Origin: Actinokineospora baliensis
GTDB lineage: Bacteria > Actinomycetota > Actinomycetes > Mycobacteriales > Pseudonocardiaceae
Direction of reading: 5' to 3'
DNA length: 64,000 nt
Assembly: GCF_016907695.1 (NCBI RefSeq)
Contig: NZ_JAFBCK010000001.1
Span: forward strand, 3,630,501 to 3,694,500
The notes under the pieces were generated by a model. It had not been told where the DNA came from and made no database searches. It saw nothing but the letters and a program-made list of their open reading frames with translations. Positions 28,088 through 52,782 of this stretch are shown piece after piece. The translations under genes were made by a program, and so were the position numbers. Every line of letters begins with the position of its first letter. Position 1 is the first letter of the stretch.

Positions 28088-29326
28088 TTAGTTCTCGTCG
28101 GCCCCGGGCCCGTGCCGGGCGGCGCGCACCAGTGGCCGGGTCAGTCCCACCACCGCCGCGCCCGCCAGCGCGAACACCCCGCCCAGTGTGAGCCAGCCGA
28201 GGGTGCCCGCGGTGACGCACAGGGCCATGGCGCTGGGTCCGACGATGTCCTGGCCGACCACGCCGAGGTTGAACACGCCGAGGTAGACGCTGCGGCGCGC
28301 GGGCGGGGCGAGGTCGTAGGAGATCTCCCACGCGCCCGCCGAGTGCAGGAGCTCGCCGAGGGTGTGTGTGGCCACGGCGAGCACGAGGGCCGTGATCGCC
28401 AGCCACAGCGCGGGGGTGGCGCTGACGGCCAGGCAGGCGCAGGTGGCGGCGAGCGCGAGGCCAGAGCCGAGGCAGCAGTTGGCCGCGTGCCGCAAGCTGC
28501 GCACCCGGCTGGCCACGACCGGCTGGAACAGCACGGCCAGCACCATGTTGCCGGAGATCAGCAGCGGTACGTACGCCCCGTCCACCGCCGTGTGCGTGGT
28601 GACCCACAGCGGGAGACCGACCGAGAGCACCGTCAGGTACATCGCCAGCACCCCGTTGACGGCGGCGAGCAGCAGGTAGCGCCGGTCCCGCAACACCGCC
28701 GTCCTGGATACCCGCCCGCGCTCCGGTTGTCCGCTGTGGACGATCGGTACCAGCCACACCAGCACCGCCGCCACCGCGAAGGAAGCGCTGTTGCCCAGCG
28801 GGACCACCTGGTCCCAGCCGAGCGCGAGCGCTCCCGTCGCGGTCAGCGCGCCGACGGTGAACCCGACGTTGCGGACCGCCCGCACCACACCCATCACCAC
28901 GACCCGGTCGCCCGCCGGGGCGACCGAACCGATCGCGCTCTGCAGCACCGGCGAGGCCACCCGGTCGGCGATCCCCGTGAGCACCGCGACTGCCAGGTAG
29001 CCGCCGAAGCCCGTGACGAACGGGTACGCGCAGAACCACAACGCGCGCCACGCGTGCAACACCCCCAGCAGCCGGACCGGGGGGTACCGGTCGCCGAGAG
29101 CGCTGATCGGGACCGAGCACACCAGTCCGCAGACCGCCGCGACGCTGAGCCCGAGCAGGACCTCGCCCGAGCTGAGCCCGGTGCGGGTGAGCAGGTACAC
29201 CACGAACGCCGACCGGAACAGGCCCGTCCCGACCGCGTCCACCAGCGCGGCCCGCACGAGCCGACCGGTCGCGCCGCGGTCGGTCAGCGCCCGTCGGACG
29301 CCGGGGCGGGTGGTGGTCGAGGTCAT
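28088..29326 (-). CDS. MFS transporter
   Basis: 412 residues, almost wholly hydrophobic segments in the 12-helix pattern of drug/metabolite exporters. The loop between helices 2 and 3 reads ALGDRYPPVRLLG, a variant of the MFS GxxxDRxGRR motif. ATG at 29326 is set by AGGAG five bases upstream. It is the last gene of a five-gene minus-strand operon, 50 bp behind the PEP-enzyme gene. Its position at the end of a set of biosynthesis-type enzymes suggests that it exports the product, as BacE does in bacilysin clusters. Import cannot be excluded. Confidence 0.9.
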   Translation of the reverse strand: MTSTTTRPGVRRALTDRGATGRLVRAALVDAVGTGLFRSAFVVYLLTRTGLSSGEVLLGLSVAAVCGLVCSVPISALGDRYPPVRLLGVLHAWRALWFCAYPFVTGFGGYLAVAVLTGIADRVASPVLQSAIGSVAPAGDRVVVMGVVRAVRNVGFTVGALTATGALALGWDQVVPLGNSASFAVAAVLVWLVPIVHSGQPERGRVSRTAVLRDRRYLLLAAVNGVLAMYLTVLSVGLPLWVTTHTAVDGAYVPLLISGNMVLAVLFQPVVASRVRSLRHAANCCLGSGLALAATCACLAVSATPALWLAITALVLAVATHTLGELLHSAGAWEISYDLAPPARRSVYLGVFNLGVVGQDIVGPSAMALCVTAGTLGWLTLGGVFALAGAAVVGLTRPLVRAARHGPGADEN

Positions 29327-29376
29327 GGTCGCTCCTAGTCGGGGGCGGTTCACCCGCCCCGGTCGGCGTTGTGGTC

Positions 29377-30570
29377 CTAGATCGCCGCGGCGCGCGACAT
29401 CGCGGCCAGTTCGAGCACCGAGGTGGACGCGATCAGCTCACCGCAGCCGGTTTCCACCAGGCCCCGAGCGGTCTCGGGGTCCTTGCGCACCTCGCCGCAG
29501 ACGAACACCGGCGTCCCGTGCTCGGCGGCCACGCGCCGGATCTGCGCGACCACCGAGCGGTTGACCGCGCTGAACGGGTCGACCGCGAGCTCGGGGTGGT
29601 TGCGGTCCACCCCGTTGATCAACGCGAACAGGTCGGAGGTGCCGATGCCGATGAACGCGGGCCTGCGCTCGGCGAGCAGGTCCGAGAGCGCGTAGACCAT
29701 CGCGGGCACCTCCAGCGTGATGCCCAGCCCGATCCGGTCGAGCACGCCTACGTCGGCGAACATCGCCGACACCACGTCGAACTCCGCCACCGTGGACACG
29801 AACGGCACGCTGACCTGGAACTCGGTGTCGGGGAACCGGGTCACCACGTGCTCGATCGCGCGGACCTCGACCGCCCACCGCCCCGGCGCGCGCGGCCCGC
29901 GCACCCCCAGTTCGGGGTTGTCCTCGACCGGCACCTCGACCCCGAGCTCGCGCAGCTCGGCCGAGGTCGGGTCGGAGAGCACGACCCGGATCCGCCGCCA
30001 GCCGTGCTCGGCCAGCGCCACCAGGGTCGCGCTCAGGTGCGCCTCGACCGCCGCCGGGTCGCCGTAGGCCGTCCTGTCCCCGGCCAGCAGCTCGAACAGG
30101 CAGAACTTGAGCCGGAAGTAGCCGATGTCGGTGACGTTCCACGACCGGTACAGCTCGACGTTGGCCCGGGTCATCGTGGAGCAGATGGCGGTCACCGGCA
30201 CCGACAGGGCGCCGAGGTCGACGATGCCCTCGGCGTCGACCTGCAGCCGGTCGCCGTCGGCGATGCGCGCCAGCGGCTCGTGGCAGGTGACCAGCGCGAC
30301 CCGGCCCTCCTGCAGCATCTTGCGCGCGTGGTCGGCGATCCGGCTGGATCCGACGACCACCCCGCGCACCCGGGGATCGCGCAGCGCCGCCCCGGTGATG
30401 TGGAAGGTGAGCTCGGGTGCCACCAGGACGATGGGGCCGTCGTGGTCGGCGGGAGCGGCACCGTGGAACGCCGTCGCGGCGAACGGCAGGTCGGGTCGGA
30501 CGACGGTTTTGGCGGCGATCGTGGCCGACCCGCTGATCGGGTCGGTGCGCTCTGGCGTGGCCAGCGTCAT
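29377..30570 (-). CDS. PEP-utilising enzyme, truncated PTS enzyme I-like
   Basis: 397 residues. The C-terminal two thirds is a PEP-binding TIM barrel like PTS enzyme I: DIGYFRLKF matches the segment with the PEP-binding Arg, EDNPELGVRGPR matches the ENPxLGxRxxR segment, GLGITLEVPAMVY and IGIGTSDL follow, and the catalytic Cys is in VFVCGEVRKDP (Cys358). Residues about 45-130 resemble the swivelling phosphohistidine domain, but the usual GGxTSHAA motif is altered; the nearest histidine is in IADHARKM. The HPr-binding helical domain of enzyme I is absent. It therefore probably transfers phosphate to or from a small molecule. Not a known named family to me. Confidence 0.7.
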   Translation of the reverse strand: MTLATPERTDPISGSATIAAKTVVRPDLPFAATAFHGAAPADHDGPIVLVAPELTFHITGAALRDPRVRGVVVGSSRIADHARKMLQEGRVALVTCHEPLARIADGDRLQVDAEGIVDLGALSVPVTAICSTMTRANVELYRSWNVTDIGYFRLKFCLFELLAGDRTAYGDPAAVEAHLSATLVALAEHGWRRIRVVLSDPTSAELRELGVEVPVEDNPELGVRGPRAPGRWAVEVRAIEHVVTRFPDTEFQVSVPFVSTVAEFDVVSAMFADVGVLDRIGLGITLEVPAMVYALSDLLAERRPAFIGIGTSDLFALINGVDRNHPELAVDPFSAVNRSVVAQIRRVAAEHGTPVFVCGEVRKDPETARGLVETGCGELIASTSVLELAAMSRAAAI

Positions 30571-30592
30571 GTCAGCATCCCCTCGTCGGTGC

Positions 30593-31705
30593 TCACAGCA
30601 GCGTCACCGGGCCCCGGCCGAGCAGCCGGGCGCCCGCGTCGAGCACCGCGCCGCAGTAGCCGGTGGTGTTGTGCACGAAGGACTGGGTGATCACCTCGAC
30701 GATCCCCGACCCGGGGAACGGGTCGCGGGCGACCAGCAGGTGCTCCGGTGTGGTGATGACGGTCGCGGCGGCCGGGCTGAGCGAGAACGCGCGCGACCCG
30801 ATGGCGACATCGGTGGTGCCGATGACCCCGGGCAGCGCCGCCGCGGCGGCGAGCATGCCCGCCCGCACCGTCTCGTGGTCCAGCGGTGCGCGCACGAAGA
30901 ACCGGCACACCTGGTAGCCCGGCGGCTGGGTGAGCACCCGCAGCGACACGGTGTTCACCGACGACACCGGGGCCAGGCGCGCCATGGACGCGCTCAGCTG
31001 CGAGTGCCCCGGCCGCAGGTTGTCCCTGGCGTCCTCGGCGCGCGCACCGACCCCGGCGGTCCCGAACCGGCTGGAGGCGGTGTCGGGGTGCACGATCTCC
31101 ACCTCGACGCGCACCAGCCCGAGGTCGTCAACCCCGGCGAGCACCGCGGCCTCGATCAGCCCGCGCAGCGGGACCGCCCAGCCGACGCACTGGCAACTGC
31201 CCAGCGCGTACACGCCCCCCTCGGGGTCGAACGGCCGCGGTACCCGCCCGATGCGCGAGAGGTCGGCCCCGGCGAGCGGCGCGTAGAACCCCGGCAGTTC
31301 CGCGTTCTCGGCGACCCCCACGACGTGCTTGGCGACCTTGCGGAACCGCCCCATCAGCGCGGCGTCGCGCACGTGCGCGCGGGTGGTCGCCACGATGGCC
31401 AGGCCGAACTGGCCCAGCTCCAGCACTTCCGGGTCTTCCGCGTCGAGGAAGTGCACCCGCACCAGCCTGCCGTCGACCAGCAGCGCCTGTTCGCCCTCGA
31501 CCGGTTCCACCCGGCCGAGCATCGCGGGATCGGCCAGCAGCATCCGCGCGACCAGTTGGCCGAGCGCGGTGACCCCGGGGCCAGGGCGGACGGCGTGGGT
31601 GACCACGTCGCCGATCAGGAAGCCGTCGCGGTCGGGGTCGTTGCGGGCGATGAGGTTGCTGCCGATGTCGGCGCCGAACCCGAGCAGCAGCGCGCGTTCA
31701 GCCAC
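30593..31705 (-). CDS. GAPDH-superfamily dehydrogenase
   Basis: 370 residues with the overall form of glyceraldehyde-3-phosphate dehydrogenases. An N-terminal Rossmann start (LLLGFGADIGSNLI) is followed by a segment FGLAIVATTRAHVRDAALM at the place of the classic EATG region. A catalytic-cysteine motif ALGSCQCVGWAVPL (Cys171/Cys173) sits where SNASCTTN normally is. Then come RDNLRPGHSQ and PVSSVNTVSLRVLTQP, matching the phosphate-site and C-terminal sheet blocks. The motifs are far from housekeeping Gap, so a different acyl-phosphate or aldehyde substrate is likely. The GTG start overlaps the ATP-grasp stop by 8 bp, showing translational coupling. An ArgC/LysY-like role on an activated acid is possible. 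Confidence 0.6.
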   Translation of the reverse strand: MAERALLLGFGADIGSNLIARNDPDRDGFLIGDVVTHAVRPGPGVTALGQLVARMLLADPAMLGRVEPVEGEQALLVDGRLVRVHFLDAEDPEVLELGQFGLAIVATTRAHVRDAALMGRFRKVAKHVVGVAENAELPGFYAPLAGADLSRIGRVPRPFDPEGGVYALGSCQCVGWAVPLRGLIEAAVLAGVDDLGLVRVEVEIVHPDTASSRFGTAGVGARAEDARDNLRPGHSQLSASMARLAPVSSVNTVSLRVLTQPPGYQVCRFFVRAPLDHETVRAGMLAAAAALPGVIGTTDVAIGSRAFSLSPAAATVITTPEHLLVARDPFPGSGIVEVITQSFVHNTTGYCGAVLDAGARLLGRGPVTLL

Positions 31706-32993
31706 GGTTCTCGCCCCCGGCGAAGGCCAGACCCAGGTCCGCGCCCGCGTCGAGCAGCGTGCGCACCTGCCCGGCCGCCGTGCGGGTGGTCGTGGCGCGG
31801 GCGGTCCAGTCGACCGCGTGCGCCATCCTGGCACGCAGGGTCGGCTCGTCGTCGGCCCGCAGGATGAGCCAGCCGCCGTGGTCGCGGTTGGCTTGGCGCA
31901 GGTCGGGCATCGTGGCACCGGGCAGGGTCGCGGTGTGCGCCGCCACGGCACCGGGCAGGGCCAACAGCTCCTCCACCCCGGGCGCGGACTCGACGTACCC
32001 CGGGACCACGGGTAGCGCGGTCTTGCCGAAGATCCCCGGCTGCGGGGCCGGTAGCGGCGCGGCCGGGGCCCCGAGCACCGCGTCCACCGCCAACCCGACG
32101 AGGTCGACGCCGAACTTGTGGGCCACCAGCTCGATCGCGGCCCCGCCGCCCGGCCGAGCCGCGCACTCGCCGAAGGACACGGTTCCCTTGCTGTGGAACA
32201 GTTCCATGTGGAACGCACCGTCGCGCAAGCCGAGGGCAGCCAGCGCGGGACCGGCGGTGGCCAGGGCCAGGGCGTACCGGTCGGCGTGCGCGTCGGGGTC
32301 GAACACGTACTTCTGCGGCAGGCCGCCGCCGGTCACCGCCAGGGGAGGGGCCACGTACCGGCCGACCGAGGCGAACCGGAGCACGCCGTCGCCGACGACG
32401 CCGTCGACGAACCACTCCTCGTCGAAGGCGACCAGGTCCTCCAGGACGAACTGGCCGGTGACCCCGTCGGCGAGCAGCGCGGCGGCGGTCTCGCGCACGG
32501 CAGGGGTGTCGGTGACCAGCCGGGTCGCCTGGCAGGCGACCCCACTGGTCGGTTTCAGGACACCACCGGTGAAGCCGGGCAGGTCCAGGTGCGCGAACTC
32601 GGCCAGCCCGGCCACGGCGCGCACGGTCGCGGTCGGTATCCCGGCGGCGCGGACCCGCTGCTTCTGGACGACCTTGTCCCGGCACGCGACGGCTGTGTCC
32701 ACCGGCAGAGCGGCGACCCCGAGCGCGGCACCGAGCAGCGCGGCCGCGACGACGCCGGTTTCCTTGGCCGAGAGCACGCAGCCGATGTCCGACAGCGGCA
32801 CGCCCGCGCGGGCGAGCGCGCCGAGGAGCTCATCGGCGTTGGCGTGGTCGGCCACCTCGACGAGGGTTTCGCCCGGTAAGGCGGGATCGGTGCCGGTGGC
32901 ACAGGTGATGGGGCGCAGGCCGCGGTGTGCGGCGGCCGCGCGCAGGTGGGGGTGCGGGCCGAGCAGCAGTGCTCGGCCCAAGTGGACAGACAT
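31698..32993 (-). CDS. ATP-grasp ligase (amino-acid ligase type)
   Basis: 431 residues resembling BacD/carnosine-synthase-type ATP-grasp ligases. A preATP-grasp Rossmann part (about 1-110) is followed by the ATP-binding lysine segments (VVQKQRVRAAGIPT; GGVLKPTSGVACQATRLV), then the hydrophobic QFVLEDLVAFDEEWFVDGVV, and the metal-ligand block AFHMELFHSKGTVSFGECAARPGGG. Such enzymes activate a carboxylate as acyl phosphate and join it to an amine or thiol. ATG at 32993 has AAGGGA seven bases upstream. It lies between the aminotransferase (26 bp gap) and the GAPDH-like gene (8 bp overlap). An acyl phosphate is exactly what a GAPDH-fold enzyme could reduce; amide bond formation is the alternative. 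Confidence 0.8.
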   Translation of the reverse strand: MSVHLGRALLLGPHPHLRAAAAHRGLRPITCATGTDPALPGETLVEVADHANADELLGALARAGVPLSDIGCVLSAKETGVVAAALLGAALGVAALPVDTAVACRDKVVQKQRVRAAGIPTATVRAVAGLAEFAHLDLPGFTGGVLKPTSGVACQATRLVTDTPAVRETAAALLADGVTGQFVLEDLVAFDEEWFVDGVVGDGVLRFASVGRYVAPPLAVTGGGLPQKYVFDPDAHADRYALALATAGPALAALGLRDGAFHMELFHSKGTVSFGECAARPGGGAAIELVAHKFGVDLVGLAVDAVLGAPAAPLPAPQPGIFGKTALPVVPGYVESAPGVEELLALPGAVAAHTATLPGATMPDLRQANRDHGGWLILRADDEPTLRARMAHAVDWTARATTTRTAAGQVRTLLDAGADLGLAFAGGENRG

Positions 32994-33019
32994 GCTGGAG
33001 TCCCTTGTGTGGTGGGGTT

Positions 33020-34285
33020 TCAGGCCGCTTCGCGCAGGGCGTGGCGCAGGATGCCGAAACCGAGGTCCAGGTCGGTCGTGGTCGCCACCAGCGGGACCAG
33101 GACGCGGATGACGTTGCCGTGCGCACCGCAGCTCTTGACCAGCAGGCCCGCCCCGCGCGCCGCCTCGACCACCGCGGCGGTCGCCTTCGGCGCGGGTTCG
33201 CGGGTGTCGCGGTCGGTCACCAGCTCGATGGCCTGCATCGCGCCGAGGCCGCGCACCTCGCCGATCAGCGGGATCTCGGCGGCGAGCTCGTCGAGCCGCG
33301 ATCGCAGGTCCGCGCCGAGGTCGGCGGCCGCGCGCTGGAACGCCGGGTCGAGCACCTGGTCGAGGGTGACCCTGGCCGCCGCGCAGGACAGCGGGTTGCC
33401 CCCCATCGTCCCGCTGGCGATGCCGCCCGGCGGTACCGCGTCCACCAGTTCCGCCCGACCGGTGACCCCGGCCAGCGGCAACCCGCCGCCGAGGGACTTG
33501 CCCCAGGCGATGAGGTCGGGGACGGCGCCGGGGACGTGGGCGCAGGCCGCGGGCGGGCCGGTGCGGCACATCCCGGACTGGATCTCGTCGAACACCAGCG
33601 CGATGCCGTGCTCGGTGCAGATCTCCCGCAGCCCCAACAAGAACTCCGGCGGCGCGGGGAGGAACCCGCCCTCGCCCTGCACCGGCTCGAACACGACCGC
33701 GGCGACGTCGGCCGGGTCCACCTCCCGCGCCAGCAGCGAGCGCACCGAGGCCAGGGCGTCCTCGGCGCTCACCCCGCGGTAGGGGTAGGGGGCCATGGCC
33801 CGGTGGGTGTCCGGCACGGGGAAGGCGCCAGGCCGGTCGGTCAGCGCGGCGGTGAGCAGGGTTCTGCCGTGGAATGCGCGGTCGAACGCGATGACCGCGC
33901 TTCGCCCGGTCGCCACCCGCGCGATTCGCACGGCGTTCTCCACGGCTTCCGCACCTGATCCCACCAGCAGCGCTTTGTACGGCCCCTCGCCAGGGTGGCA
34001 GGCCACCAGCCGCTTGCACACCTGCGAATAGCCGTCGTATTGTGCGGCCGAATAGCCTACGTGCAGGTGTGCTTCGAGTTGTTCCCGTATGGCTACGACG
34101 ACGGCGGGCGGGGTGTGCCCGCCGTTGAGCGCGCCGACGCCGCCCGCGAAGTCGATGTACTCGTTGCCGTCGACATCGCGGATGCGCGCACCCTCAGCAC
34201 TGGCCACGACCAGCGGGGATGTCAGCACAGCCGCGGCGACGTACCTTCTGCGCTCAGCGTCCAAATCGGCTGAAAAAGGGTGCAC
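33020..34285 (-). CDS. Class III PLP aminotransferase (GabT-like)
   Basis: 421 residues of the 4-aminobutyrate/ornithine-type aminotransferase family. Landmarks are VDGNEYIDFAGGVGALNGGH, GSGAEAVENAVRIAR, AFHGRTLLTAALT, the cofactor-binding FEPVQGEGGF and FDEIQSGMCRTG, and the Schiff-base Lys in AWGKSLGGGLPLAGV. It transfers omega- or alpha-amino groups between an amine and a keto acid or aldehyde. The start is uncertain. GTG at 34285 gives a normal N-terminus; TTG at 34312 has a G-rich stretch upstream, and no in-frame ATG exists nearby. First gene of the ATP-grasp/GAPDH-like/PEP-enzyme/MFS operon. It could aminate the aldehyde formed by the dehydrogenase. Confidence 0.88.
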   Translation of the reverse strand: MHPFSADLDAERRRYVAAAVLTSPLVVASAEGARIRDVDGNEYIDFAGGVGALNGGHTPPAVVVAIREQLEAHLHVGYSAAQYDGYSQVCKRLVACHPGEGPYKALLVGSGAEAVENAVRIARVATGRSAVIAFDRAFHGRTLLTAALTDRPGAFPVPDTHRAMAPYPYRGVSAEDALASVRSLLAREVDPADVAAVVFEPVQGEGGFLPAPPEFLLGLREICTEHGIALVFDEIQSGMCRTGPPAACAHVPGAVPDLIAWGKSLGGGLPLAGVTGRAELVDAVPPGGIASGTMGGNPLSCAAARVTLDQVLDPAFQRAAADLGADLRSRLDELAAEIPLIGEVRGLGAMQAIELVTDRDTREPAPKATAAVVEAARGAGLLVKSCGAHGNVIRVLVPLVATTTDLDLGFGILRHALREAA

Positions 34286-34536
34286 ACGGGCACCATTGTG
34301 AAATGTGAACAAAGCAAACCCCCAAGGTTCCTCTGTGTCTCGTGGGCAAGCATAGGTGGCGGCGCGACCAAGATCACCAACGTTCTTGGATGCTGAGATA
34401 TAGCCAACAGACGCCGTCGCGCACCCGACCGGTCTATTGCTCGAAAGCGCGCGGCTGCGATACCCGCGCACTGCGGTGCGAATGGTCCTTACCAATTGCG
34501 CTGCGGGTCTGAATTGTCTGTCCACAAAGGAAGTGG

Positions 34537-36102
34537 CTATTCGATGTGGACATCGATCACGCCGGAGGCCGCGCCCGCCACCAGGTCGATGCGGTGCGGC
34601 CGCTGGGCGGGGGCGAGGGTCGTCCACCAGTGCAGGGCCGCCGCCGTGGCTGAGGGGGTGGTGGTGGAGGTGGCCGCGATGGCCGGGCCGACGCGGGGCC
34701 AGGCCCGGGTGGTGCCGTCCGCGCCGACGGCGGTGACCAGGCGGGCGGCCGGGTACCTGGCGAGCAGGTCCCGCGCGTGGGTGCCGTCGTCGGCCGCGAT
34801 GGTGGTCCAGACGACCGCGGCCGCTTCCAGGAGGGCGATGTCGGTGGTGGTGTCGGCGGTGCTCAGCCAGCCGGGGGACCAGCGGCCGGTGGTCCTCGCG
34901 ATCGCCAGCCGCGCGCGGCCCCCGTCGAGGTGGGCCTGGGTGACCGTCGTCCGGTAGTGCGACGGTTGGGGGAGGTCGACGCGCGGCCGGGGGACCGGGG
35001 TGACCGTCGGCCGCGCCACCGGCAGGCCCATGAGCTCGTAGAACACCTGGTCCACGGTCGTCGGTCCGGGGTGGAAGACGGCATCGGTGACCGACCGGGG
35101 CGCCGGGGCGGGCAGGTCGTCGGGGACCCCGTCGGCGGGGAGCCGGGGCAGGGTCGACAGCAGGTCCGCGAGCGGCGAGTGCGGGACGACCTCGGGACCG
35201 CCGTCCGCGGCGAGCAGCACGGGACGGCCCGCGGCCGCGGCGTAGGCGGTCACCGAACCGTGGTCGGAGACCACGACGTCGGCGGCGAGCAGCCCGGGGC
35301 GCCAGTCCTCGGTCGGGGGGATCAGCACCAGGCCCGCCTCGACCGCGGGCCGCAACCACGCGCGGACCTGCAGCGGGCCGTGCCGCTGCCAGACGTTGGG
35401 GTGCAGGGTCATGGCCACCCGGTACTCGTCGACGGGCAGCGACGTGACCAGTTCCTCGGCCAGTCCCGGGTTCGTGCCCAGCAGCGAGTGCCTGCCCCAG
35501 GTCGAGCACAGCAGCACCACCCGCCTGCCCTCGGCGTCGAAGTGGCGGCGGTGGTGCGGGCGGTGCGGTTCGCTCGCGGTGATCCGGTCCAGGCACGGGT
35601 CGGTCGCCACCACCGCGTGCCCGGCCAGCCGAGGGTCGACCGACGCCAGCGCCGCGACCTGGCGCGGGTGCGCCACGACCACAGCGCGCGGCAGGACCCG
35701 GCCACCCGCGACCAGCGCCGACGCGCGCAAGCCGGAGATGGCCGCCGGATCGCTGGTCGAGCGGCGGTGGTAGCCCGCCCCGTGCGGCATGAGGACCAGC
35801 GGGGCGGCGAACCGGCGCAGGTCGCTGTTGTCGCTGGCGGCCACGGCCAGGTCGAACTCGTCGCGGCCCGCCCGCGCCCAGGGCACCACCAGCGCACCCG
35901 AGTCGACCAGCCGCTCGGTGAGCCCGGCGGAGAACACCGACCCGGTGTCGACGGTGAACACCACCTCGACGCGGGGATCACCGACCACCGTGCCGAGCGC
36001 GTCCTGCAACCGCAGCAGCGCCGCGGGCGTCCGCACCACCACCAACACCCTGCGCTGCGGCGCGACGGTGTCCCACCGCCCCGCTCGTGCCGGTGTGCCC
36101 AC
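34537..36102 (-). CDS. CDP-glycerol glycerophosphotransferase-like protein
   Basis: 521 residues, GTG start. The middle of the protein follows the second domain of TagF/TagB-type CDP-glycerol transferases (GT-B-like fold): MTLHPNVWQRHG, then LLAADVVVSDHGSVTAYAAA and GRPVLLAADG, which parallel the nucleotide-site blocks of that family. The N-terminal half has LMPHGAGYHRRS at the place of the usual HGxxxK catalytic histidine. No membrane segment was seen. It may add a polyol phosphate to cell-wall polymer, or be a nucleotide-glycan transferase of unknown target. It is divergent from the STAND ATPase across 111 bp. The 251 bp on its 3' side, before the aminotransferase start, hold no gene that I can see. 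Confidence 0.6.
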   Translation of the reverse strand: MGTPARAGRWDTVAPQRRVLVVVRTPAALLRLQDALGTVVGDPRVEVVFTVDTGSVFSAGLTERLVDSGALVVPWARAGRDEFDLAVAASDNSDLRRFAAPLVLMPHGAGYHRRSTSDPAAISGLRASALVAGGRVLPRAVVVAHPRQVAALASVDPRLAGHAVVATDPCLDRITASEPHRPHHRRHFDAEGRRVVLLCSTWGRHSLLGTNPGLAEELVTSLPVDEYRVAMTLHPNVWQRHGPLQVRAWLRPAVEAGLVLIPPTEDWRPGLLAADVVVSDHGSVTAYAAAAGRPVLLAADGGPEVVPHSPLADLLSTLPRLPADGVPDDLPAPAPRSVTDAVFHPGPTTVDQVFYELMGLPVARPTVTPVPRPRVDLPQPSHYRTTVTQAHLDGGRARLAIARTTGRWSPGWLSTADTTTDIALLEAAAVVWTTIAADDGTHARDLLARYPAARLVTAVGADGTTRAWPRVGPAIAATSTTTPSATAAALHWWTTLAPAQRPHRIDLVAGAASGVIDVHIE

Positions 36103-36213
36103 CGTCCCCCGCGATCTCCGCCCCGAACTCCCGCAGCGGGCACCGTAGCAAGGCGCCGCGCGGGCCGAGCCCGTGCAGTACCGTGCTGCTCACGGATCAT
36201 CACGGGGGGCCGA

Positions 36214-38268
36214 GTGGGTACCGACGGAGTGCACAACGTGCAGGCCGGTGTTGCGGCGCAGGTGGTGCAGGCCCGCGACATCGGGACCGTCACGTTCCTG
36301 GCGCCGCAGGCCCCGGCGTCGATCCCCGCGCTCGTGCCGCCCGGCCCGGCCGCCTTCGTCGACCGCGTCGAGCACCTCGCCGCCGTCCGCTCGCTGATCG
36401 GGGCCGAGCCGACGCCGGGGCGGCCGGTGGTGGTCGCCGTCCGGGGCATGCCGGGCGTGGGCAAGACGGCGTTGGTGCGCCAGGTGGCCACCGTGCTGGC
36501 CGCGGACTTCCCCGACGGTTCCCTGCACGCCACTTTCGGTGTCGGCGGCGAGTCGCCGTCGGAGGCGCTCGGCAGGCTGCTCAAGGCATTGGGCGTGCCC
36601 GACGCGTCGGTGCCGACCGACTTCCGGCGCAGGCGGGACCTGTACCGCTCGCTCACCGCGCGGACCAGGCTGATCACCGTGCTCGACGACGTCACCGACG
36701 CTGGACAGGTCGAGGCGCTGCTGCCCAACTCGGCCGCGGGTCTCGTCCTGGTCGCGAGCAACACGGCCCTGGAAGACCTGCACGCCGACGGCGCGGTGCC
36801 GCTGGTGGTGGAGCCGTTGGAGATCAACGACGCGCTCGACCTGCTGCGCCAGGTCTGCGCCGATGGACGGGTCGACCGCGATCCGGCCGCGGCCGCCGAG
36901 CTCGTCGACCTGTGCGGGCGGTTGCCGCTGGCCATCAGGGCGGCGGGCGCGCGGCTGGCCGTGCGCCCGCGGTGGGCGCTCGCGCGCCTGGTCGAGGAGC
37001 TGCGCGGCACCGAAGCCGATCGCGTGCTCGACCGGGTCAACACCGTGTTCGACACCGTCTACGCCGACCTGCCGCCGCGCGCCCGCGCCGTCTACCGCGT
37101 GCTCGGTTTGCTGGTGGGCCGGGACTTCTGCGTCGAAGTGGTGGCCGCGGTCGTCGACGAACCGGTCGCCGAGGTGCGCGAACTGCTCGACCAGCTCGCC
37201 ACGGCCGCACTGGTCGAGGAGCGCGCCGACGACCGCTACGCCGTGCACCGCCTGGTCCGGGCGCACGCGCTGCGGGTCGCCGACGAGCACACCACCGGGC
37301 ACGACCGCGAGAACCTGTTGCTGCGCGCCGTCGACTGGTGGCTCTTCGGCGCCACCGCCGCCGATGTCGCCGCCACCGGCCGCGAACGCCTGCGCGTCGC
37401 CGACCCCGACCGCCTCCTCAGCGGCGTCGAACTCACGATGAGCCCCCACGCCGCACTGGCCTGGTTCGACCGCGAGCACACCAACATCGCGGCCGCCATG
37501 CGCGCGTGCGCCGAAAAGGGGTGGCACACGCTCGTGTGGCAACTGTTCGAGGCCACCTTCGCCTACTACGACGCCCGCAGGCCGCTCGCATCCTGGGTCG
37601 AGACCGGAATCCTCGCCGTCGAATCGTCCGTTGTGGACGGTGATGTCGCCGCCGAGGCCCGCTGCCGGTGCCTGCTCGCCAAGGCGTACCAGGAGCTGGA
37701 GCGCTACGACCTCGCCGAGTCCGAACTGGACAAAGCGAGGGCTCTGCCGGTCGGCGACCGTCTCCAGGGGTCGACCTACGATTTCACCGGGAATCTGGCC
37801 CTGCGCACCGGCGACTTCGAGGACGCGCTGCACTGGTTCACCATGGCCCGCGACATCAACGTCCGACTGGATCGCAAGCGCGGCACCGCCATGCAGACCC
37901 TGTTCGTCGGCCGAGCCCTCGCAGGCCTCGGCCGCACCGCCGAAGCCCTGACGACCTTCACCGAAGCGGCAGGCTTGGCGCTCGACGCAGGCGCCCACAG
38001 CGTTCTGGCCAAAGCCTTCCTGGCCACCGCGGCCGCCCACTCCACCACCCACCACCACGCCGAGGCCGACCAAGCCCTCGCCGAGGCCGAGCGGATCGCG
38101 CACGAGCTCGACAACACCGCGCTGCAAGCTGAGATCCACCTGCTCCGAGCCACCACAGCCACCACCCAAGGCGACCTGGAAGCCGCCCACTCCCACCGCC
38201 AAGCCGCCGCGGCCGCCTACGAACGCATGGGAAGCCCGAAGGCCGCCCGCCTACTGGCAGGCCACTAG
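36214..38268 (+). CDS. NB-ARC-type STAND ATPase with TPR repeats
   Basis: 684 residues, GTG start with GGGGGG four bases upstream. A short N-terminal beta motif (NVQAGVAAQVVQARDIGTVTF, about 8-28) of the kind common in actinobacterial NB-ARC proteins comes first. It is followed by a P-loop GMPGVGKT (78-85), Walker B RLITVLDDV, the NB-ARC GRLPLAIRAAG motif, a winged-helix region, and C-terminal TPR repeats (about 430-680). Unlike AfsR it lacks the SARP DNA-binding domain. STAND proteins are signal-activated switches that oligomerise; its output is unclear because no effector domain is recognisable. It could regulate the divergent transferase gene or act in defence. Confidence 0.85.
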   Translation: MGTDGVHNVQAGVAAQVVQARDIGTVTFLAPQAPASIPALVPPGPAAFVDRVEHLAAVRSLIGAEPTPGRPVVVAVRGMPGVGKTALVRQVATVLAADFPDGSLHATFGVGGESPSEALGRLLKALGVPDASVPTDFRRRRDLYRSLTARTRLITVLDDVTDAGQVEALLPNSAAGLVLVASNTALEDLHADGAVPLVVEPLEINDALDLLRQVCADGRVDRDPAAAAELVDLCGRLPLAIRAAGARLAVRPRWALARLVEELRGTEADRVLDRVNTVFDTVYADLPPRARAVYRVLGLLVGRDFCVEVVAAVVDEPVAEVRELLDQLATAALVEERADDRYAVHRLVRAHALRVADEHTTGHDRENLLLRAVDWWLFGATAADVAATGRERLRVADPDRLLSGVELTMSPHAALAWFDREHTNIAAAMRACAEKGWHTLVWQLFEATFAYYDARRPLASWVETGILAVESSVVDGDVAAEARCRCLLAKAYQELERYDLAESELDKARALPVGDRLQGSTYDFTGNLALRTGDFEDALHWFTMARDINVRLDRKRGTAMQTLFVGRALAGLGRTAEALTTFTEAAGLALDAGAHSVLAKAFLATAAAHSTTHHHAEADQALAEAERIAHELDNTALQAEIHLLRATTATTQGDLEAAHSHRQAAAAAYERMGSPKAARLLAGH

Positions 38269-38328: not shown

Positions 38329-38820
38329 ACACTTGGCCCGCCTGAGGCCGCCTCGCCGTCATCTGCGGCCACCCTCCGAGGGGTGCGCCCGCACGCCTGC
38401 GGCCCCGCTCAGACCCCAGTCACCGCCGGGCCTCGAACGGCGTCGCCAGGTCTGTCACGGGTTACGCCGTGCAGCATGTGCTCTAGTACTTCCGGTCCCC
38501 GCACCACCTGCGGCCACACTTGGCCCGCCTGAGCCGTGTCTCGGCCATCCTGCGAGGCCGCGCCGCCCGGAGCGCCGCACAGACCCGGTCACCCGCCGGG
38601 CCTTCAACGCCTCGTGCCATTCCTCCGCCTCCGCGCACCACCTGCGGCACGCTGGCCCAACAGAGGCCACCCTGCCAGGTCCGCGCCCGCCCCCGGAACG
38701 CCGCTCAGACCCCAGTCACCCGCCGGGCCTCCAACGGTGTCACCGGATCTCCCACAGCCACCCCGTGCAGCACCCACGCCAGTACCTCCGCCCCCCGCAC
38801 CACGCGAGGTCCCGGCCGGT
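38329..38820. repeat. Degenerate three-copy direct repeat covering the end of the BtuF-like gene
   Basis: Three diverged units. The element ACACTTGGCCCGCCTGAG occurs at 38329 and 38516 exactly, and in weaker form at 38649. CAGACCCC..GTCAC..CGCCGGGCC occurs at 38410, 38580 and 38706, and CCCCGCACCAC-type sequence follows each. Periods are uneven (about 187 and 130 bp), showing internal deletions. The third unit is the last 35-40 codons of the BtuF-like gene. The 436-bp gap 38269-38704 holds nothing else that I can see. Confidence 0.75.
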
Positions 38821-39613
38821 TGAAGTACGCGGGTCCGTCAACCACCCACACCTCTCCCGTCCGAACCGCGGGCAGCTCCGCCCACCCCGCCCTCCCGGTC
38901 AGCGCCCCCACCTCCGCCACCGTCCGATCAGGCGCCAACCCACAAGGCATCAACAGCACCACATCCGGACGAGCCGCCACCACCGCGTCCCACTCCACCG
39001 GTGACGTGTGTTCCCCCGCCGCCGCCAGCAGCGGCGAGCCTCCAGCCGCCGTGATCTGCTCGGGCACCCAGTGCCCGGCAGGCCACACCGGGTCAAGCCA
39101 CTCGATCGCCACCACCCGGGGCCGCGCCCGCCCCGCCACCGCTGCTTCGACCGCCGCCCAACGGTTCCGCAGCTCGGCGACCCGCGCGCCTGCATCAGCA
39201 ACGCCCAGCATGTTGCCCACCCGGGACACGCAGTCGAGCACATCCGCCGTGGTGCGTGGTTCCAGGCTCACCACCCGAGGCCCGACGTCCAGTACCCGTA
39301 CCGCGTCGGCGACCCGCTGGTAGGACACCGCGCACACGTCGCACAGGTCTTGGGTCAGGACCAGGTCCGGCTCCAGTTCGGCGAGCCGCGCTACGTCCAA
39401 TGTGTACAGTGATGAGCCGTGGTGGCCCGCCACCGCCGCGGAGATCTCCCGGCTGGTCAGCCGGTCGGGATCCACCCCGGTCGCGGTGACCACCGGGACG
39501 GAAGCCACCTCGGCTGGCCAGTCGCACTCGTGGGTGCGGCCGACCAGGTCGCCCGCCCGGCCGAGGACCGCGACGATGTCGGTCGCGGCGGGCAGCAACG
39601 ACACGATCCGCAT
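38705..39613 (-). CDS. BtuF-like cobalamin/metal-chelate binding protein without signal peptide
   Basis: 302 residues with the class III periplasmic-binding fold (PF01497). Landmarks are [17 protein letters not shown] at the N-terminus, [32 protein letters not shown] and a long bridging helix around residues 140-165. It starts directly at the mature domain, with neither signal peptide nor lipobox, so it is probably cytosolic; such BtuF-like proteins are common in actinobacteria and their role is unsettled. ATG at 39613 has no ribosome site; a GTG six codons earlier is possible, and a leaderless transcript would fit. Its last ~35 codons are repeated twice downstream as degraded copies. Confidence 0.8.
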
Positions 39614-39630
39614 GGGGTCAGGGTAAAACA

Positions 39631-39664
39631 CGTCCGGGCCCGCCGAGGTCGGCGGGCCCGGACG
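39631..39664 (-). terminator. katG terminator
   Basis: A perfect 14-bp stem (CGTCCGGGCCCGCC and its complement) with a 6-base loop, 15 bp past the katG stop. It is followed on the minus strand by TGTTTT. It ends the furA-katG transcript and lies immediately before the start of the BtuF-like gene on the same strand. Confidence 0.85.
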
Positions 39665-39678
39665 CGGGGTCGATCGGA

Positions 39679-42343
<2,665 letters not shown>

Positions 42344-46246: not shown

Positions 46247-46533
46247 CGCGTTTGGCCGATCCCCGGGATTGTCTCGATTGTCTAAACTTCGCGTGGAGGA
46301 CTGACGGGCGCACGGGAATGTTCGACACTGGGCAACGCCGGGACTCGAAGTTGATCGCCTACGTCCACAGTAGAAACATCTACCCCGCGATACCGCTGTG
46401 TGGTAGGGGATCCCGCGCGCGATGGCGATTCGCCGCGATTACGCCTTTGGGCGTATTCCCAGCGGCCACCCCGGTCTGGTTGAGTCCAGAACTGCTGTAC
46501 TCACTGGGGCTCGTGATTTCACTGGGGTGTGAA

Positions 46534-49500
46534 ATGGATCAACGGCTGTCCTACGACGCTGTCCTGATGCCGCGACGCGGCAGATCGGTGCTGGTGCCGA
46601 TCATCGTGCTTGTTCTGATCTTCTCCGGCCTCACCGCGGTGCGGCCACCCGAAACCGCCGCCGCGCCGTCGCGGCTGCCGAAGGCGGCGCCGGACAAGGT
46701 GGTCGGTCACACCGTCCACGTCCCGCCGCCCAGGGCCGCCGCCGCACCGACCGATACCGGTCCGCGCGCGGCCACGGCCTGGCCCGCCGCGGGATCGGCC
46801 GAGGTGGTGCTGGGTGCCGACCGGCCGACCGGGCGCGCCGAGCGGGGCAACGCCGCTGAGCGCGCCGCCAGGACCCCCTCGGTTCGCCGGGCCGGTTCCC
46901 TGCCGGTCACCATCGCCTCGGGCACCGAGGAGCGGGTCCGGGTCGAGGTCACCGACCAGGCACTCGCGCGCCGCGCTGGCGTGCGTGGCGTCTTGGTCGG
47001 CGTGCGCTCCGCCAAGGCCGTCGACTCGGCCACGGTGTCGGTCGACTACGCCTCCTTCCGCCACGCCGGTGGCGCCGACCTGGGCAGTAGGCTGACCCTG
47101 GTGCGGCTCCCGGAGTGCGCCCTGACCACCCCGGACGTGCCCGCCTGCCAGGTGCAGACCCCGCTGGCCGCGCGCAACGACTCCGCGGCCCAGTCGGTGT
47201 CCGCTGCCGTCCCGGTGCGCGGCACGACGGTGCTGGCCGCCACCGCGAGCGGCTCGGGCGCCAACGGCGCGTTCACCGCCAGCTCGCTCACCCCGGCCAC
47301 CGCCTGGGGGGTCACCGGCAACTCCGGGGCGTTCACCTGGAGCTACCCGATCGAACTGCCGCCGACCGCGGCGGGTCCCGGCGCGCAGCCCAAGGTCGAG
47401 CTGTCCTACAACTCCGCCTCCGTGGACGGGCGCACGTGGGCGACCAACAACCAGAGCTCGTGGGTCGGTCAGGGCTGGGACTACGCGCCCGGATTCGTCG
47501 AGCGCACCTATCGCCAGTGCTCCGACGACACCACCCTGCCGCAGGCCCAGCGCACCGGTGACCTGTGCTGGGCGGGCCAGGTCGTCACGATGAACCTCAA
47601 CGGCCGCTCGACCTCGCTGGTCCGCAACGACGCGGATGGCACGTGGCGTTCGGCCAAGGACGACGGCACCCGCGTCGAGCTGCTCACCGGCGTCAGCAAC
47701 GGTGCCCGCAACGGTGAGCACTGGCGCATCACGACCACCGATGGCACCCAGTACTACTTCGGCCGCAACGACGGCCCCGGACGCACCACACAGGACACCA
47801 CCAACTCCACCTGGACCACCCGCGTCTACGGCCCGCGCTCAGGCGACCCCTGCTACAACGCGAGCGGATTCGCCCAGTCCCACTGCGCCCAAGCCTGGCG
47901 CTGGAACCTCGACTACGTCGAAGACACCCACGGCAACGCTGCCCTCTACTACTACACGCCCGAAACCAACTTCTACGGCGCCAACAACGGCACCACCGGC
48001 ATCGCCTACACCCGCGGCGGCACCCTCAAGCGCATCGACTACGGGCTCCGCAAGACCAGCGGTTCGGTCTACGGCGCGGTGGCTCCTGCCCAGGTCGTGT
48101 TCGACATCGCCGAGCGGTGCACGCCTTCCGGCGCGATCACCTGCGACCCGGCCCAGTTCACCGCGGCCAACGCGGCGTCGTGGCCGGACACCCCGCAGGA
48201 CCAGCAGTGCCTCTCCGGCGCGACCTGCAACATCCACTCGCCGACCTTCTGGTCCACCAAGCGGTTGACCACCATCACCACCACGTACGACACCGGTTCC
48301 GGTCCGGTCAGGGTCGAGTCGCACGCGCTGACCCAGACGTTCCCCTCGATCGGTGACCCCGAGCTGCGGCTGGACCAGATCGTGCGCACCGCCTACGACG
48401 CCGCCCAGGTCGGTACGGCGCTGCCGCCGGTGACCTTCACCAGCCAGCTGCTGGACAACCGGGTCAGTGGCTACAACGGACAGTCCGCCATGGCGCACTG
48501 GCGGTTGACCACCGTAGGCACCGGCACGGGTGGCCGCGTCCAGGTGTCCTACCTGCCGACCGAGTGCACCGCGACCACGGTCCCGACCGACCTGGCGAAC
48601 AACACCAAGCGCTGCTTCCCGGTGTACTGGACGCTCCCGCTCAACCAGAACCCCACCCTGGACTTCTTCCACATCCACCCGGTGTCGCGCGTCGAGGTGC
48701 AGGACGCCAACGCCATCTCGCCGACCGGTCGCACGGACTACGCCTACCTGGGCACCCCCGCCTGGCACTTCGACGACAACGAGCTCGTCAAGCCCGCCAA
48801 CCGCACCTACGGCCAGTTCCGCGGCTACGCCCAGGTCGAAACCCGCACCGGCAACCCGGCCAACCTCACCGACGGCGTCGCCGACCAGCAAACCCTCACC
48901 AAGACCACCTACCTGCGCGGCATGCACGGCGACACGCTGCCCGGCAACCAGCAGCGCACGGTCTCGGTCACCAACTCCCTCAACGAGTCCGTGGTGGACG
49001 ACAACCTCTTCGCCGGTGGTGAACTGGAAACCCAGACCTACCTGGGTTCCGGCGGCACCCGCCTCACCTCGACCCTGACCGAGCCGGTCAAGGTCGCCAC
49101 CACCGCCACCCGCGCTCGCACCGGGTTGTCCGCGGCGACCGCCGACATCGTCGCGATCAACCGCACCCGGACCATCACCGACCTCGCCGCGGGTGGCACC
49201 CGGGTGACCTCATCGGTCAACCGCTACGACGCGATCGGCCGCAAGGTGTCCACAACGGACTCCGCGACCGGTTTGCCGGACAAGTGCACGACGACCTCCT
49301 ACGCCGACAACACCACGTCGTGGATCCGTGGTCGGGTCGCCGAGGTCCAGCAGTCCTCGGTGGCGTGCCCCACGTCCGGACCGGTCGTCGCGCCCAGCCC
49401 GGTCGTCGCGGCCGAGCGCACCTACTACGACGGCCAGGGCACCCTCGGTGCCGTCTCCGGAGCGGGTGACGCGACCAGGGGCGACAAGGCCACCGCCAAC

Positions 49501-52500: not shown

Positions 52501-52782
52501 CAGTGGACCATCGAGTACACCACCGCCCACGAACGCAAACCGGATGCCAACAAGGTCGCCATGGCCATGGACCTCTACAACAACGAGCAGGGGCGGCGGA
52601 TCGCGCGGGAGAACCCGCACGCCTCGGAGCAGCAGCTGGTCAAGATCATCGACAAGGCCATCCGCGACGGCGAGGCGGTGGTGATCCACGAGAAGGATCT
52701 CGCTTACAGTAACGACAACGGCGGGCCCGGTGTGCCGTCCGGGATCGGGACGTACGAGGTCAACTACCAGGACGGGTACTAG
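46534..52782 (+). CDS. RHS/YD-repeat polymorphic toxin
   Basis: 2082 residues. The ATG at 46534 is preceded by GGGG and leads to a membrane/signal segment (about 18-37). An actinobacterial RHS N-terminal part follows (about 250-560, with SYNSASVDG and SSWVGQGWDY), then dozens of YD repeats, ending in the core motif GRFISVDPVFNHEDP (about 1804-1818) and the NPTTHSDPTG hinge where RHS toxins are cut. The variable C-terminus (about 1850-2082) carries HADAFRHMYWNAMMSRQFG, TAHERKPD and MDLYNNEQGRRIA, which I recall as DUF6973-type toxin-associated signatures. A lipoprotein gene starts directly after the stop. Role: contact-dependent or released toxin against competitors. Confidence 0.9.
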   Translation: MDQRLSYDAVLMPRRGRSVLVPIIVLVLIFSGLTAVRPPETAAAPSRLPKAAPDKVVGHTVHVPPPRAAAAPTDTGPRAATAWPAAGSAEVVLGADRPTGRAERGNAAERAARTPSVRRAGSLPVTIASGTEERVRVEVTDQALARRAGVRGVLVGVRSAKAVDSATVSVDYASFRHAGGADLGSRLTLVRLPECALTTPDVPACQVQTPLAARNDSAAQSVSAAVPVRGTTVLAATASGSGANGAFTASSLTPATAWGVTGNSGAFTWSYPIELPPTAAGPGAQPKVELSYNSASVDGRTWATNNQSSWVGQGWDYAPGFVERTYRQCSDDTTLPQAQRTGDLCWAGQVVTMNLNGRSTSLVRNDADGTWRSAKDDGTRVELLTGVSNGARNGEHWRITTTDGTQYYFGRNDGPGRTTQDTTNSTWTTRVYGPRSGDPCYNASGFAQSHCAQAWRWNLDYVEDTHGNAALYYYTPETNFYGANNGTTGIAYTRGGTLKRIDYGLRKTSGSVYGAVAPAQVVFDIAERCTPSGAITCDPAQFTAANAASWPDTPQDQQCLSGATCNIHSPTFWSTKRLTTITTTYDTGSGPVRVESHALTQTFPSIGDPELRLDQIVRTAYDAAQVGTALPPVTFTSQLLDNRVSGYNGQSAMAHWRLTTVGTGTGGRVQVSYLPTECTATTVPTDLANNTKRCFPVYWTLPLNQNPTLDFFHIHPVSRVEVQDANAISPTGRTDYAYLGTPAWHFDDNELVKPANRTYGQFRGYAQVETRTGNPANLTDGVADQQTLTKTTYLRGMHGDTLPGNQQRTVSVTNSLNESVVDDNLFAGGELETQTYLGSGGTRLTSTLTEPVKVATTATRARTGLSAATADIVAINRTRTITDLAAGGTRVTSSVNRYDAIGRKVSTTDSATGLPDKCTTTSYADNTTSWIRGRVAEVQQSSVACPTSGPVVAPSPVVAAERTYYDGQGTLGAVSGAGDATRGDKATANTGGSLTFATVSTAQFDASGRPVSQKDALNRETKTAYTPADGGIVAQVVTTNPKNQTTTTTLEPSRSNTTKAVDVGNRATEATYDVFGRTTAVWKPGRVKANGDAASALYTYLVRDDGPLAVTTKTLVDYGTGTNYVTSVTLYDALGRVKQTQTDDVSNPVAVANRVVSETFYDSHGWAVESHNRYVTTGVPSTTLVTAPDASVDDRTVTGFDNSGRVVRVVSHQGLTAKATTTTVYGGDRVTTIPPTGGVTKMVVSDALGRKSEIREYSAAPTVTGNVVSGGTSRNSAFEYDALGNVARATDGAGSQWVYAYDFLGRQTGLTDPDAGQAGLALDPAGQITSTTDGRGQVLSFDYDVLGRKTAEYSGVGPGRTMLASWVFDTATAGVGKLHSSTRYTPSGNYQVGVSGYNSVGLPTNKVVSVPAAETGLNGFHTTTYSYTTTGQLTGTALPTKGGLPGEALTFVVNKYGKESQTRSGVWDYVSDSVYTAAGEASEYSLSSGNNAGKLTYERDPRTHVVNHTNLSVQAATPLVDDLRYTRDPAGNLTKVVNARPANTRTQCFGYDSLNRLDNAWTATDGCAAQPSGSTVGGPDPYWTSWTFSAVGLRTGQTKHGIGQGDTTTTYTYPAANAARPHAVTSTSTTGPGGTVGASYGYDNAGNATTRGAHTQTWNENGKLAQVQSPAGTTSYVYDADGNQLLRRDPGKVTLYLPGQEWARDTATGTITGTRYYTHNGTVVARRVGSGNPAYLSSDQHGTTQVSVSAVGFAVTRREVDPYGNQVGAVQGGPWADNHGFLDKPTSAATGLVDIGARKFDPELGRFISVDPVFNHEDPSSWTGYTYANDNPTTHSDPTGLFCDGCGLDTVAGSTVGCSLSTGRVCRSEAEEKAAWKKEMADRRKAELRNIRNRYQVAPDPKGKVKYRGSGLAGLAARLTGVKEQEVAHSEMVILSNMSLSETNTFHSIFKKTLWMGKHAYEGRGETDGHADAFRHMYWNAMMSRQFGEQWTIEYTTAHERKPDANKVAMAMDLYNNEQGRRIARENPHASEQQLVKIIDKAIRDGEAVVIHEKDLAYSNDNGGPGVPSGIGTYEVNYQDGY

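What the first reader, a model, noticed from the sequence alone, without database searches (positions are those of the whole stretch)
28088..34285. Five-gene operon combining aminotransferase, ATP-grasp ligase, GAPDH-like enzyme, enzyme I-like PEP enzyme and MFS exporter
The genes are codirectional with gaps of 26, -8, 22 and 50 bp, so they form one operon. ATP-grasp enzymes make acyl phosphates, GAPDH-fold enzymes convert acyl phosphates and aldehydes, class III aminotransferases aminate aldehydes, and an MFS protein could export the product. A PEP-utilising enzyme cut down from the PTS enzyme I type is unexpected in such a set. I know no named pathway with this combination; a small amino-acid-like or phosphorylated metabolite is possible.
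Basis: partly seen in the sequence, partly recalled or inferred. Interest (0 to 1): 0.82.

Follow-up and report, generated by a model that had tools for sequence, protein, structure and literature searches.

The report
Rare operon: GAPDH-like plus PEP enzyme
Two related soil bacteria carry a five-gene set that probably makes and exports a small molecule, built around two uncharacterised enzymes that also occur together in distant bacteria and may use the cell fuel PEP to turn an acid into an aldehyde.

Summary
The five genes are real and lie as described. The GAPDH-like protein matches no Pfam or NCBIfam family, but its model has a clear GAPDH fold and an invariant Cys and His. The PEP protein keeps the PEP barrel plus a swivel-like domain whose histidine aligns with enzyme I's phospho-histidine; it lacks the HPr-binding and ATP-grasp domains. 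The full set was found in two Actinokineospora species only. The conserved unit is the pair GAPDH-like + PEP enzyme, in 8 of 19 neighbourhoods read (Actinomycetota, Enterobacterales, one on a plasmid); these GAPDH-like proteins group together across phyla. Upstream activating genes vary (amino-acid ligase here, YrdC elsewhere). Best model (0.33): PEP phosphorylates the histidine, the phosphate passes to a carboxylate, the GAPDH-like enzyme reduces the acyl phosphate to an aldehyde, the aminotransferase aminates it, the ligase joins it to an amino acid, the MFS protein exports it. Evidence is fold, motif and linkage only. The Gly-Gly loop before the histidine is missing in 39 of 39 relatives and Pfam does not recognise the swivel domain, so the phosphocarrier step is uncertain.

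The parts
33020..34312 (-). Class III (PLP) aminotransferase, closest to 4-aminobutyrate transaminases; start TTG 34312 or GTG 34285
   Evidence: Pfam Aminotran_3 334.5 bits; TIGR00700 396 bits, under its equivalog cut-off of 507; solved GABA-T 1sf2 E 5.8e-103; best other match in this genome 39% identical
31698..32993 (-). ATP-grasp protein of the L-amino-acid ligase group
   Evidence: LAL_C2 26.9 bits, below cut-off; solved L-amino acid ligases 4wd3 E 4.8e-12 and 30vh E 2.6e-10
30593..31705 (-). GAPDH-fold oxidoreductase of a family without Pfam/NCBIfam match; putative catalytic Cys170 at 31193-31195 and His205 at 31088-31090 (numbering of P0003, which starts at the second codon)
29377..30570 (-). 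PEP enzyme: swivel-like domain (residues about 40-118) with invariant Asp80-His81 (His81 codon 30328-30330), then PEP-binding TIM barrel (about 120-397); no HPr-binding or ATP-grasp domain matched
   Evidence: PEP-utilizers_C 73.2 bits; hhalign to enzyme I profile 99.3%, 317 columns, His81 on the active His; model pLDDT 92; folds of PPS/EI/PPDK; DHA[RK]KML in 39 of 39
28088..29353 (-). MFS transporter, probable exporter; start GTG 29353 or ATG 29326
   Evidence: Pfam MFS_1 69.3 bits

Best explanation
The operon makes and exports a small amino-acid conjugate. Its core is a PEP-driven carboxyl reduction. (1) The PEP enzyme takes the phosphoryl group of PEP onto His81 of its swivel-like domain. 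(2) It hands the phosphoryl group to a substrate carboxylate, perhaps bound by the GAPDH-like partner, giving an acyl phosphate. (3) The GAPDH-like enzyme forms a thioester on Cys170 and reduces it with NAD(P)H to an aldehyde. (4) The GABA-T-like aminotransferase converts the aldehyde to an amine. (5) The ATP-grasp ligase joins the product, or its precursor, to an amino acid. (6) The MFS protein exports it. This is the logic of kinase-reductase-aminotransferase modules such as ArgB-ArgC-ArgD or LysX-LysZ-LysY-LysJ (recalled), with PEP in place of ATP as phosphoryl donor. Shown: gene order, folds of models, invariant residues, and linkage of the core pair across phyla. Inferred: every reaction, the direction, the substrate and the product.
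For: GAPDH fold with GSCQ and [VI]HPDT in 47 of 47 proteins. PEP enzyme: profile match to enzyme I over swivel plus barrel, His81 aligned with the active His, also in the co-alignment. Residues invariant in the 22-row family alignment include Arg153, Glu287, Asp313, Arg323 and Cys358, which align with enzyme I residues that I recall as PEP/Mg ligands and enolate proton donor. The pair is adjacent, same order, same strand in 8 of 19 loci, and PEP-linked GAPDH-like proteins fall on one side of a branch, support 99/98. The ATP-grasp protein matches solved L-amino acid ligases and the aminotransferase matches GABA-T. An EamA or MFS transporter gene lies within about 5 kb of the pair in 7 of these 8 loci; the eighth, L015, is a 4.6-kb contig. 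Precedents: enzyme I alone phosphorylated a small molecule in vitro, though this was not detected in vivo (PMC13099321, passages); split swivel-domain kinases HpeHI, CreHI and PpsAB phosphorylate phenolic substrates (PMC12167813, passages).
Against: The loop T/SxxGGxxxH, described as the conserved sequence before the swivel His (PMC12167813), is absent in 39 of 39 family members but present in 16 of 22 enzyme I rows, some of them partial. Pfam's swivel-domain model (PF00391) does not match the window protein nor, in the precomputed domains, the 39 family rows; the family-only profile aligned this part to PEP synthase at only -2.9 bits, though with His on His, and the 99.3% may be carried mostly by the barrel. 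The co-alignment holds three enzyme I rows and leans towards them. Whole-length structural alignments have rmsd 10.9-12.6, that is, other domain angles. The Arg of enzyme I's RTLD strand has no aligned counterpart, and the Asn of GTND is Ser312. No acceptor-binding domain is visible. The YrdC type of locus shows no match to the window's aminotransferase or ATP-grasp proteins. The two Desulfuromonadales members have neither phosphotransferase partner. A kinase reading of the partner in nine other loci failed a profile test. No biochemical data exist.
Confidence: 0.33

Rival explanations
1. The gene upstream supplies the activated acyl group: ATP-grasp here, YrdC or another ATP-grasp elsewhere, citrate-lyase type in Desulfuromonadales. 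The GAPDH-like enzyme reduces that acyl phosphate, acyl adenylate or thioester. The PEP enzyme then acts on the product, for example by phosphorylating a hydroxyl.
For: In 14 of 19 loci the gene(s) directly upstream are of a kind that activates a carboxyl or carbamate: L-amino-acid-ligase type in L011; YrdC in L010, L012, L013, L014, L016, L027; PylC/Ter-type ATP-grasp in L020-L023, L028; citrate-lyase type in L018, L019. It also covers the two loci without a phosphotransferase partner.
Against: L-amino-acid ligases normally pass the acyl phosphate straight to an amine. The upstream partner varies while the PEP partner is fixed in the PEP-linked group that I could read. L017, L025 and L026 show no such upstream gene among the kinds searched; L015 and L024 end too early to tell.
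Confidence: 0.27
2. The PEP enzyme is a PEP- or pyruvate-dependent C-C bond former: it adds an enolpyruvate unit to the aldehyde made by the GAPDH-like enzyme, as NeuB does with a sugar aldehyde, and the aminotransferase aminates the resulting 2-oxo acid.
For: The phosphocarrier Gly-Gly loop and one Arg are not found. The wider barrel superfamily includes HpcH/HpaI aldolases, seen as distant Foldseek matches. NeuB, a PEP-condensing enzyme, lies near GAPDH-like genes in 5 of 9 loci of the third type (L020-L023, L028).
Against: His81 and Cys358 are invariant, which suits phosphoryl transfer with enolate protonation. The nearest relatives by sequence and by fold are phosphotransferases.
Confidence: 0.15
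3. The PEP enzyme phosphorylates a hydroxyl and the GAPDH-like enzyme acts on the resulting sugar-phosphate-like aldehyde, as GAPDH or erythrose-4-phosphate dehydrogenase do; the product is a phosphorylated or sugar-derived metabolite.
Against: A shared fold says nothing about substrate. GABA-T-like aminotransferase and amino-acid ligase genes point to amino acids instead.
Confidence: 0.13
4. Five neighbours without a common pathway: the pair is one system and the aminotransferase, ligase and transporter another, brought together in an accessory region.
For: The set's GAPDH-like gene is in 2 of 390 family genomes. Elsewhere the pair has other neighbours. In 9 of 9 other Actinokineospora nrdB loci read, the DNA match to the window ends at nrdB.
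Against: Tight spacing with an 8-bp overlap between ligase and GAPDH-like genes, and retention at 96-99% identity in a second species, which may however be one inheritance.
Confidence: 0.12

Closest known systems
Phosphorylating GAPDH / erythrose-4-phosphate dehydrogenase
   Same: Fold over nearly the whole length of the model; Cys and His motifs in the expected order; Gly-rich nucleotide loop
   Different: No Pfam/NCBIfam match and no PDB match by sequence at E below 1; 11-18% identity in the structural alignments shown; own motifs GSCQ and HPDT; genes linked to a PEP enzyme or to activating enzymes
Enzyme I of the PTS / PEP synthase / PPDK
   Same: Swivel-like domain plus PEP barrel, aligned active His
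   Different: No HPr-binding and no ATP-grasp domain; Gly-Gly loop missing; one PEP-site Arg without aligned counterpart; PF00391 not matched
Two-component swivel kinases HpeHI, CreHI, PpsAB and rifampin phosphotransferase
   Same: Swivel-His phosphotransferases recruited for small molecules (PMC12167813, passages; PMC4844700, start of abstract in the listing only)
   Different: They use ATP through an ATP-grasp component and have another substrate domain; here the donor barrel is the PEP type
ArgB-ArgC-ArgD and LysX-LysZ-LysY-LysJ modules (recalled)
   Same: Logic of activation, GAPDH-type reduction and class III transamination, with an ATP-grasp step in LysX
   Different: No ATP carboxylate kinase among the five proteins; the reductase matches no Pfam family at all
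ATP-grasp dipeptide pathways, e.g. phosphonoalamides (PMC11867202, passages)
   Same: Aminotransferase plus L-amino-acid ligase making an unusual amino-acid peptide
   Different: No PEP mutase domain matched here; the passages seen name no reductase/PEP-enzyme pair

Membership tests
GAPDH (phosphorylating) | GAPDH fold | tested here: met
GAPDH (phosphorylating) | Sequence membership in the Pfam/NCBIfam GAPDH models | tested here: not met
   0 families for the protein
GAPDH (phosphorylating) | Nucleophilic Cys and catalytic His | tested here: inconclusive
   GSCQ and [VI]HPDT in 47 of 47; their equivalence to GAPDH Cys/His rests on sequence order and fold, not on a superposition that I could inspect
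GAPDH (phosphorylating) | Glyceraldehyde-3-phosphate as substrate | not testable with these tools
   Needs an assay
Enzyme I / PEP-utilising phosphotransferases | PEP-binding barrel | tested here: met
   PF02896 73.2 bits over a 22.8 cut-off
Enzyme I / PEP-utilising phosphotransferases | Phospho-histidine in a swivel domain | tested here: inconclusive
   His81 invariant and aligned; but PF00391 not matched and loop T/SxxGGxxxH absent in 39 of 39
Enzyme I / PEP-utilising phosphotransferases | HPr-binding (enzyme I) or ATP-grasp (PPS, PPDK) domain | tested here: not met
   397 aa, two domains in the model; only PF02896 matched
L-amino acid ligase (ATP-grasp) | Sequence similarity to solved ligases | tested here: met
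   4wd3 E 4.8e-12; LAL_C2 stays below its cut-off
L-amino acid ligase (ATP-grasp) | Peptide-bond formation between amino acids | not testable with these tools
   Needs an assay
4-aminobutyrate transaminase | Score above the equivalog cut-off | tested here: not met
   TIGR00700 396 bits against 507: class III aminotransferase near GABA-T, substrate open
ArgB-C-D / LysX-Z-Y-J type module | Amino-acid-kinase-family carboxylate kinase | tested here: not met
   None among the five proteins
Phosphonate pathway | PEP mutase (PepM) | tested here: not met
   None among the five proteins; only PF02896 in the PEP protein

The most novel reading that the evidence does not exclude
A transferable two-enzyme cassette that reduces carboxylic acids to aldehydes at the expense of PEP: a two-domain enzyme-I derivative makes an acyl phosphate through a phospho-histidine and hands it to a dedicated, uncatalogued GAPDH-fold reductase. 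It would have been plugged into different natural-product operons (amino-acid ligase, YrdC) by exchanging the neighbours.
Probability: 0.27. Interest if true: 0.78.

Novelty: new variant of a known kind. Interest (0 to 1): 0.6.

Why it matters
If the model holds, it adds a PEP-powered carboxyl-reduction step to biosynthesis and a small-molecule branch of the enzyme I/PPDK family with PEP as donor. It also names a GAPDH-fold family that Pfam and NCBIfam miss, so that source records call its members hypothetical (names). The pair is a compact handle for finding related small-molecule clusters in Actinomycetota and Enterobacterales.

Tried and rejected
Rejected or weakened: (1) 'A cut-down enzyme I is unexpected here': it is the regular partner of the GAPDH-like protein in one group. 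(2) A conserved five-gene pathway: found only in two species. (3) Phosphonate pathway: no PepM domain. (4) ATP-grasp as part of the conserved core: 1 of 20 listed homologues shares a contig length with the family; that search scored only 7,997 candidates, so divergent ligases beside other copies are not excluded. (5) Kinase reading of the protein downstream of the GAPDH-like gene in nine loci (L017, L020, L021, L022, L023, L024, L025, L026, L028); alignment A4 holds 8 of these 9, L025 left out. I see kinase-like residues by eye (Lys, Glu, H-x-N-x-x-x-x-N, D-x-D; recalled motif), but Pfam found nothing relevant, PDB sequences nothing relevant, and hhalign against seven APH-family stretches from the window's genome gave P 0.07 against 0.11 and 0.5 for two controls. 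It stays a lead. (6) Viral contigs: no relative; phages: none; complete E. coli genomes: no near match to the L015 stretch; plasmids: one. (7) No promoter-like site; one terminator-like site against 1.2 expected. (8) Paper searches listed no paper that, by title and start of abstract, describes this gene set; one search did not complete. HpcH/HpaI aldolases and pyruvate kinases appear only as lower structural matches.
Full report
Observation. The window lies in a 7.68-Mb genome whose operon is 96-99% identical in protein to that of Actinokineospora diospyrosa; the genus is inferred from that. The five genes are present with the stated order and gaps, with third-codon-position GC of 0.89-0.96. 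They lie convergent to nrdA/nrdB. In 9 of 9 other Actinokineospora nrdB loci that I read, the DNA match to the window ends at nrdB, while in A. diospyrosa it runs on from 28114 to 38261 and from 38736 to 42327, the end of the stretch fetched. The block is therefore accessory.

PEP enzyme. Pfam sees only the PEP barrel, not the swivel model PF00391 (likewise the precomputed domains of 39 family rows). Profile comparison with 12 enzyme I proteins gives 99.3% probability over 317 columns, including the swivel domain, with His81 on the enzyme I active His. The co-alignment agrees (it holds three enzyme I rows). A family-only profile finds PEP synthase and enzyme I in the PDB through the barrel; its swivel part aligns His on His with PEP synthase but at -2.9 bits. 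The model (pLDDT 92) matches PPDK, enzyme I and PEP synthase; several alignments run over both domains, with rmsd 10.9-12.6 because the domain angles differ. Invariant in the 22-row family alignment are Asp80, His81, Arg153, Glu287, Asp313, Arg323 and Cys358, among others. Against full competence: the loop T/SxxGGxxxH, described as conserved before the swivel His (PMC12167813, passages), is present in 0 of 39 family members and in 16 of 22 enzyme I rows, and one Arg of the PEP site has no aligned counterpart. The genome has one other PEP-utilizers_C gene.

Neighbourhoods. I read 19 loci (18 and the Pantoea plasmid) with tblastn. The gene next downstream of the GAPDH-like gene is the PEP enzyme in 8 (L010, L011, L012, L013, L014, L015, L016, L027), the uncharacterised A4 protein in 9 (L017, L020, L021, L022, L023, L024, L025, L026, L028), and neither in 2 (L018, L019: citrate-lyase-type genes upstream; PEPC downstream in L018 only). 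Of the 8, six have a YrdC-family gene upstream (five of them 76-84% identical to the Pantoea one; closest solved relative a threonylcarbamoyl-AMP synthase); L015 is cut short and L011 has the ATP-grasp, as in the window. The Rhodococcus loci add a PBP-family protein, MFS, aldehyde dehydrogenase and class I aminotransferase (Pfam for L027; similarity for L014). Four gammaproteobacterial ones (L010, L012, L013, L016) add EamA and an alpha/beta hydrolase. In L020-L023 and L028 a PylC/Ter-type ATP-grasp is directly upstream and a NeuB gene lies before it or nearby. On the GAPDH-like tree (26 rows, seven of them without known context) the PEP-linked members are one side of a branch with 99/98 support, spanning Actinomycetota and Pseudomonadota; the place of the window inside that group is only weakly supported. 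By equal contig length, 25 of 46 GAPDH-like rows share a contig with a PEP-family row; equal length is a proxy, and short contigs cannot show a partner. For Actinoplanes ianthinogenes and Streptomyces sp. CSDS2 the source names also carry neighbouring locus numbers (51130/51120 and 14050/14045).

Function. The ATP-grasp protein is closest to solved L-amino acid ligases and the aminotransferase to GABA transaminases, below the equivalog cut-offs shown. With an exporter at the end, a secreted amino-acid conjugate is the simplest product class. For the core I favour PEP to His81 to carboxylate to GAPDH-like reduction, because the two genes are adjacent in every PEP-linked locus that I read, GAPDH-fold enzymes work on acyl phosphates or thioesters (established knowledge), and a carboxylate acceptor needs no separate base. 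The main rival is that the upstream enzyme supplies the acyl group, which also covers the loci without any phosphotransferase partner (14 of 19 loci have an upstream activating enzyme). A PEP-condensing role of the PEP enzyme is a third possibility, supported by the missing Gly-Gly loop and by NeuB beside other family members. None of these is shown.

Literature. Enzyme I alone phosphorylated rifampicin in vitro, though this was not detected in vivo (PMC13099321, passages), and split swivel kinases act on phenols (PMC12167813, passages). So recruitment of swivel-domain enzymes for small molecules is known; a two-domain PEP-type member paired with a GAPDH-fold enzyme was not seen in the listings of searches of an open-access library that lacks most subscription journals.

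Noticed in passing
L018:5715-14038, L019:7-4965: In two Desulfuromonadales MAGs a GAPDH-like relative lies next to ATP-citrate-lyase-type genes (a 902-aa CoA-binding subunit with about 600 residues unmatched in Pfam), in L018 also beside PEP carboxylase.
   Followed up: partly
L017, L020, L021, L022, L023, L024, L025, L026, L028 (gene downstream of the GAPDH-like gene): An uncharacterised protein family (alignment A4) without relevant Pfam match, with an invariant H-x-N-x-H-x-x-N and D-P-D (8 rows) that looks kinase-like with Asn in place of the catalytic Asp; the profile test was not significant.
   Followed up: partly
L021:3210-14344, L023: Pelagibacteraceae clusters of nonulosonic-acid type (NeuB, cytidylyltransferase fused to class III aminotransferase, PylC-like ATP-grasp) that contain a GAPDH-like relative.
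   Followed up: no
L010:6632-14999: Pantoea alhagi plasmid, typed as mobilizable, carries the YrdC + GAPDH-like + PEP enzyme set with EamA, hydrolase and regulator genes and an IS3 transposase.
   Followed up: partly
window 46252-52782 (+): 2176-aa RHS-repeat protein ending in DUF6973.
   Followed up: no
window about 36400-38268 (+): NB-ARC plus TPR protein, possibly a regulator, on the other strand upstream of the operon; the region is shared with A. diospyrosa.
   Followed up: no
window 34537-36102 (-): 521-aa protein without Pfam or NCBIfam match, same strand, 224 bp upstream of the aminotransferase, 93% identical in A. diospyrosa; it could belong to the same accessory block.
   Followed up: no
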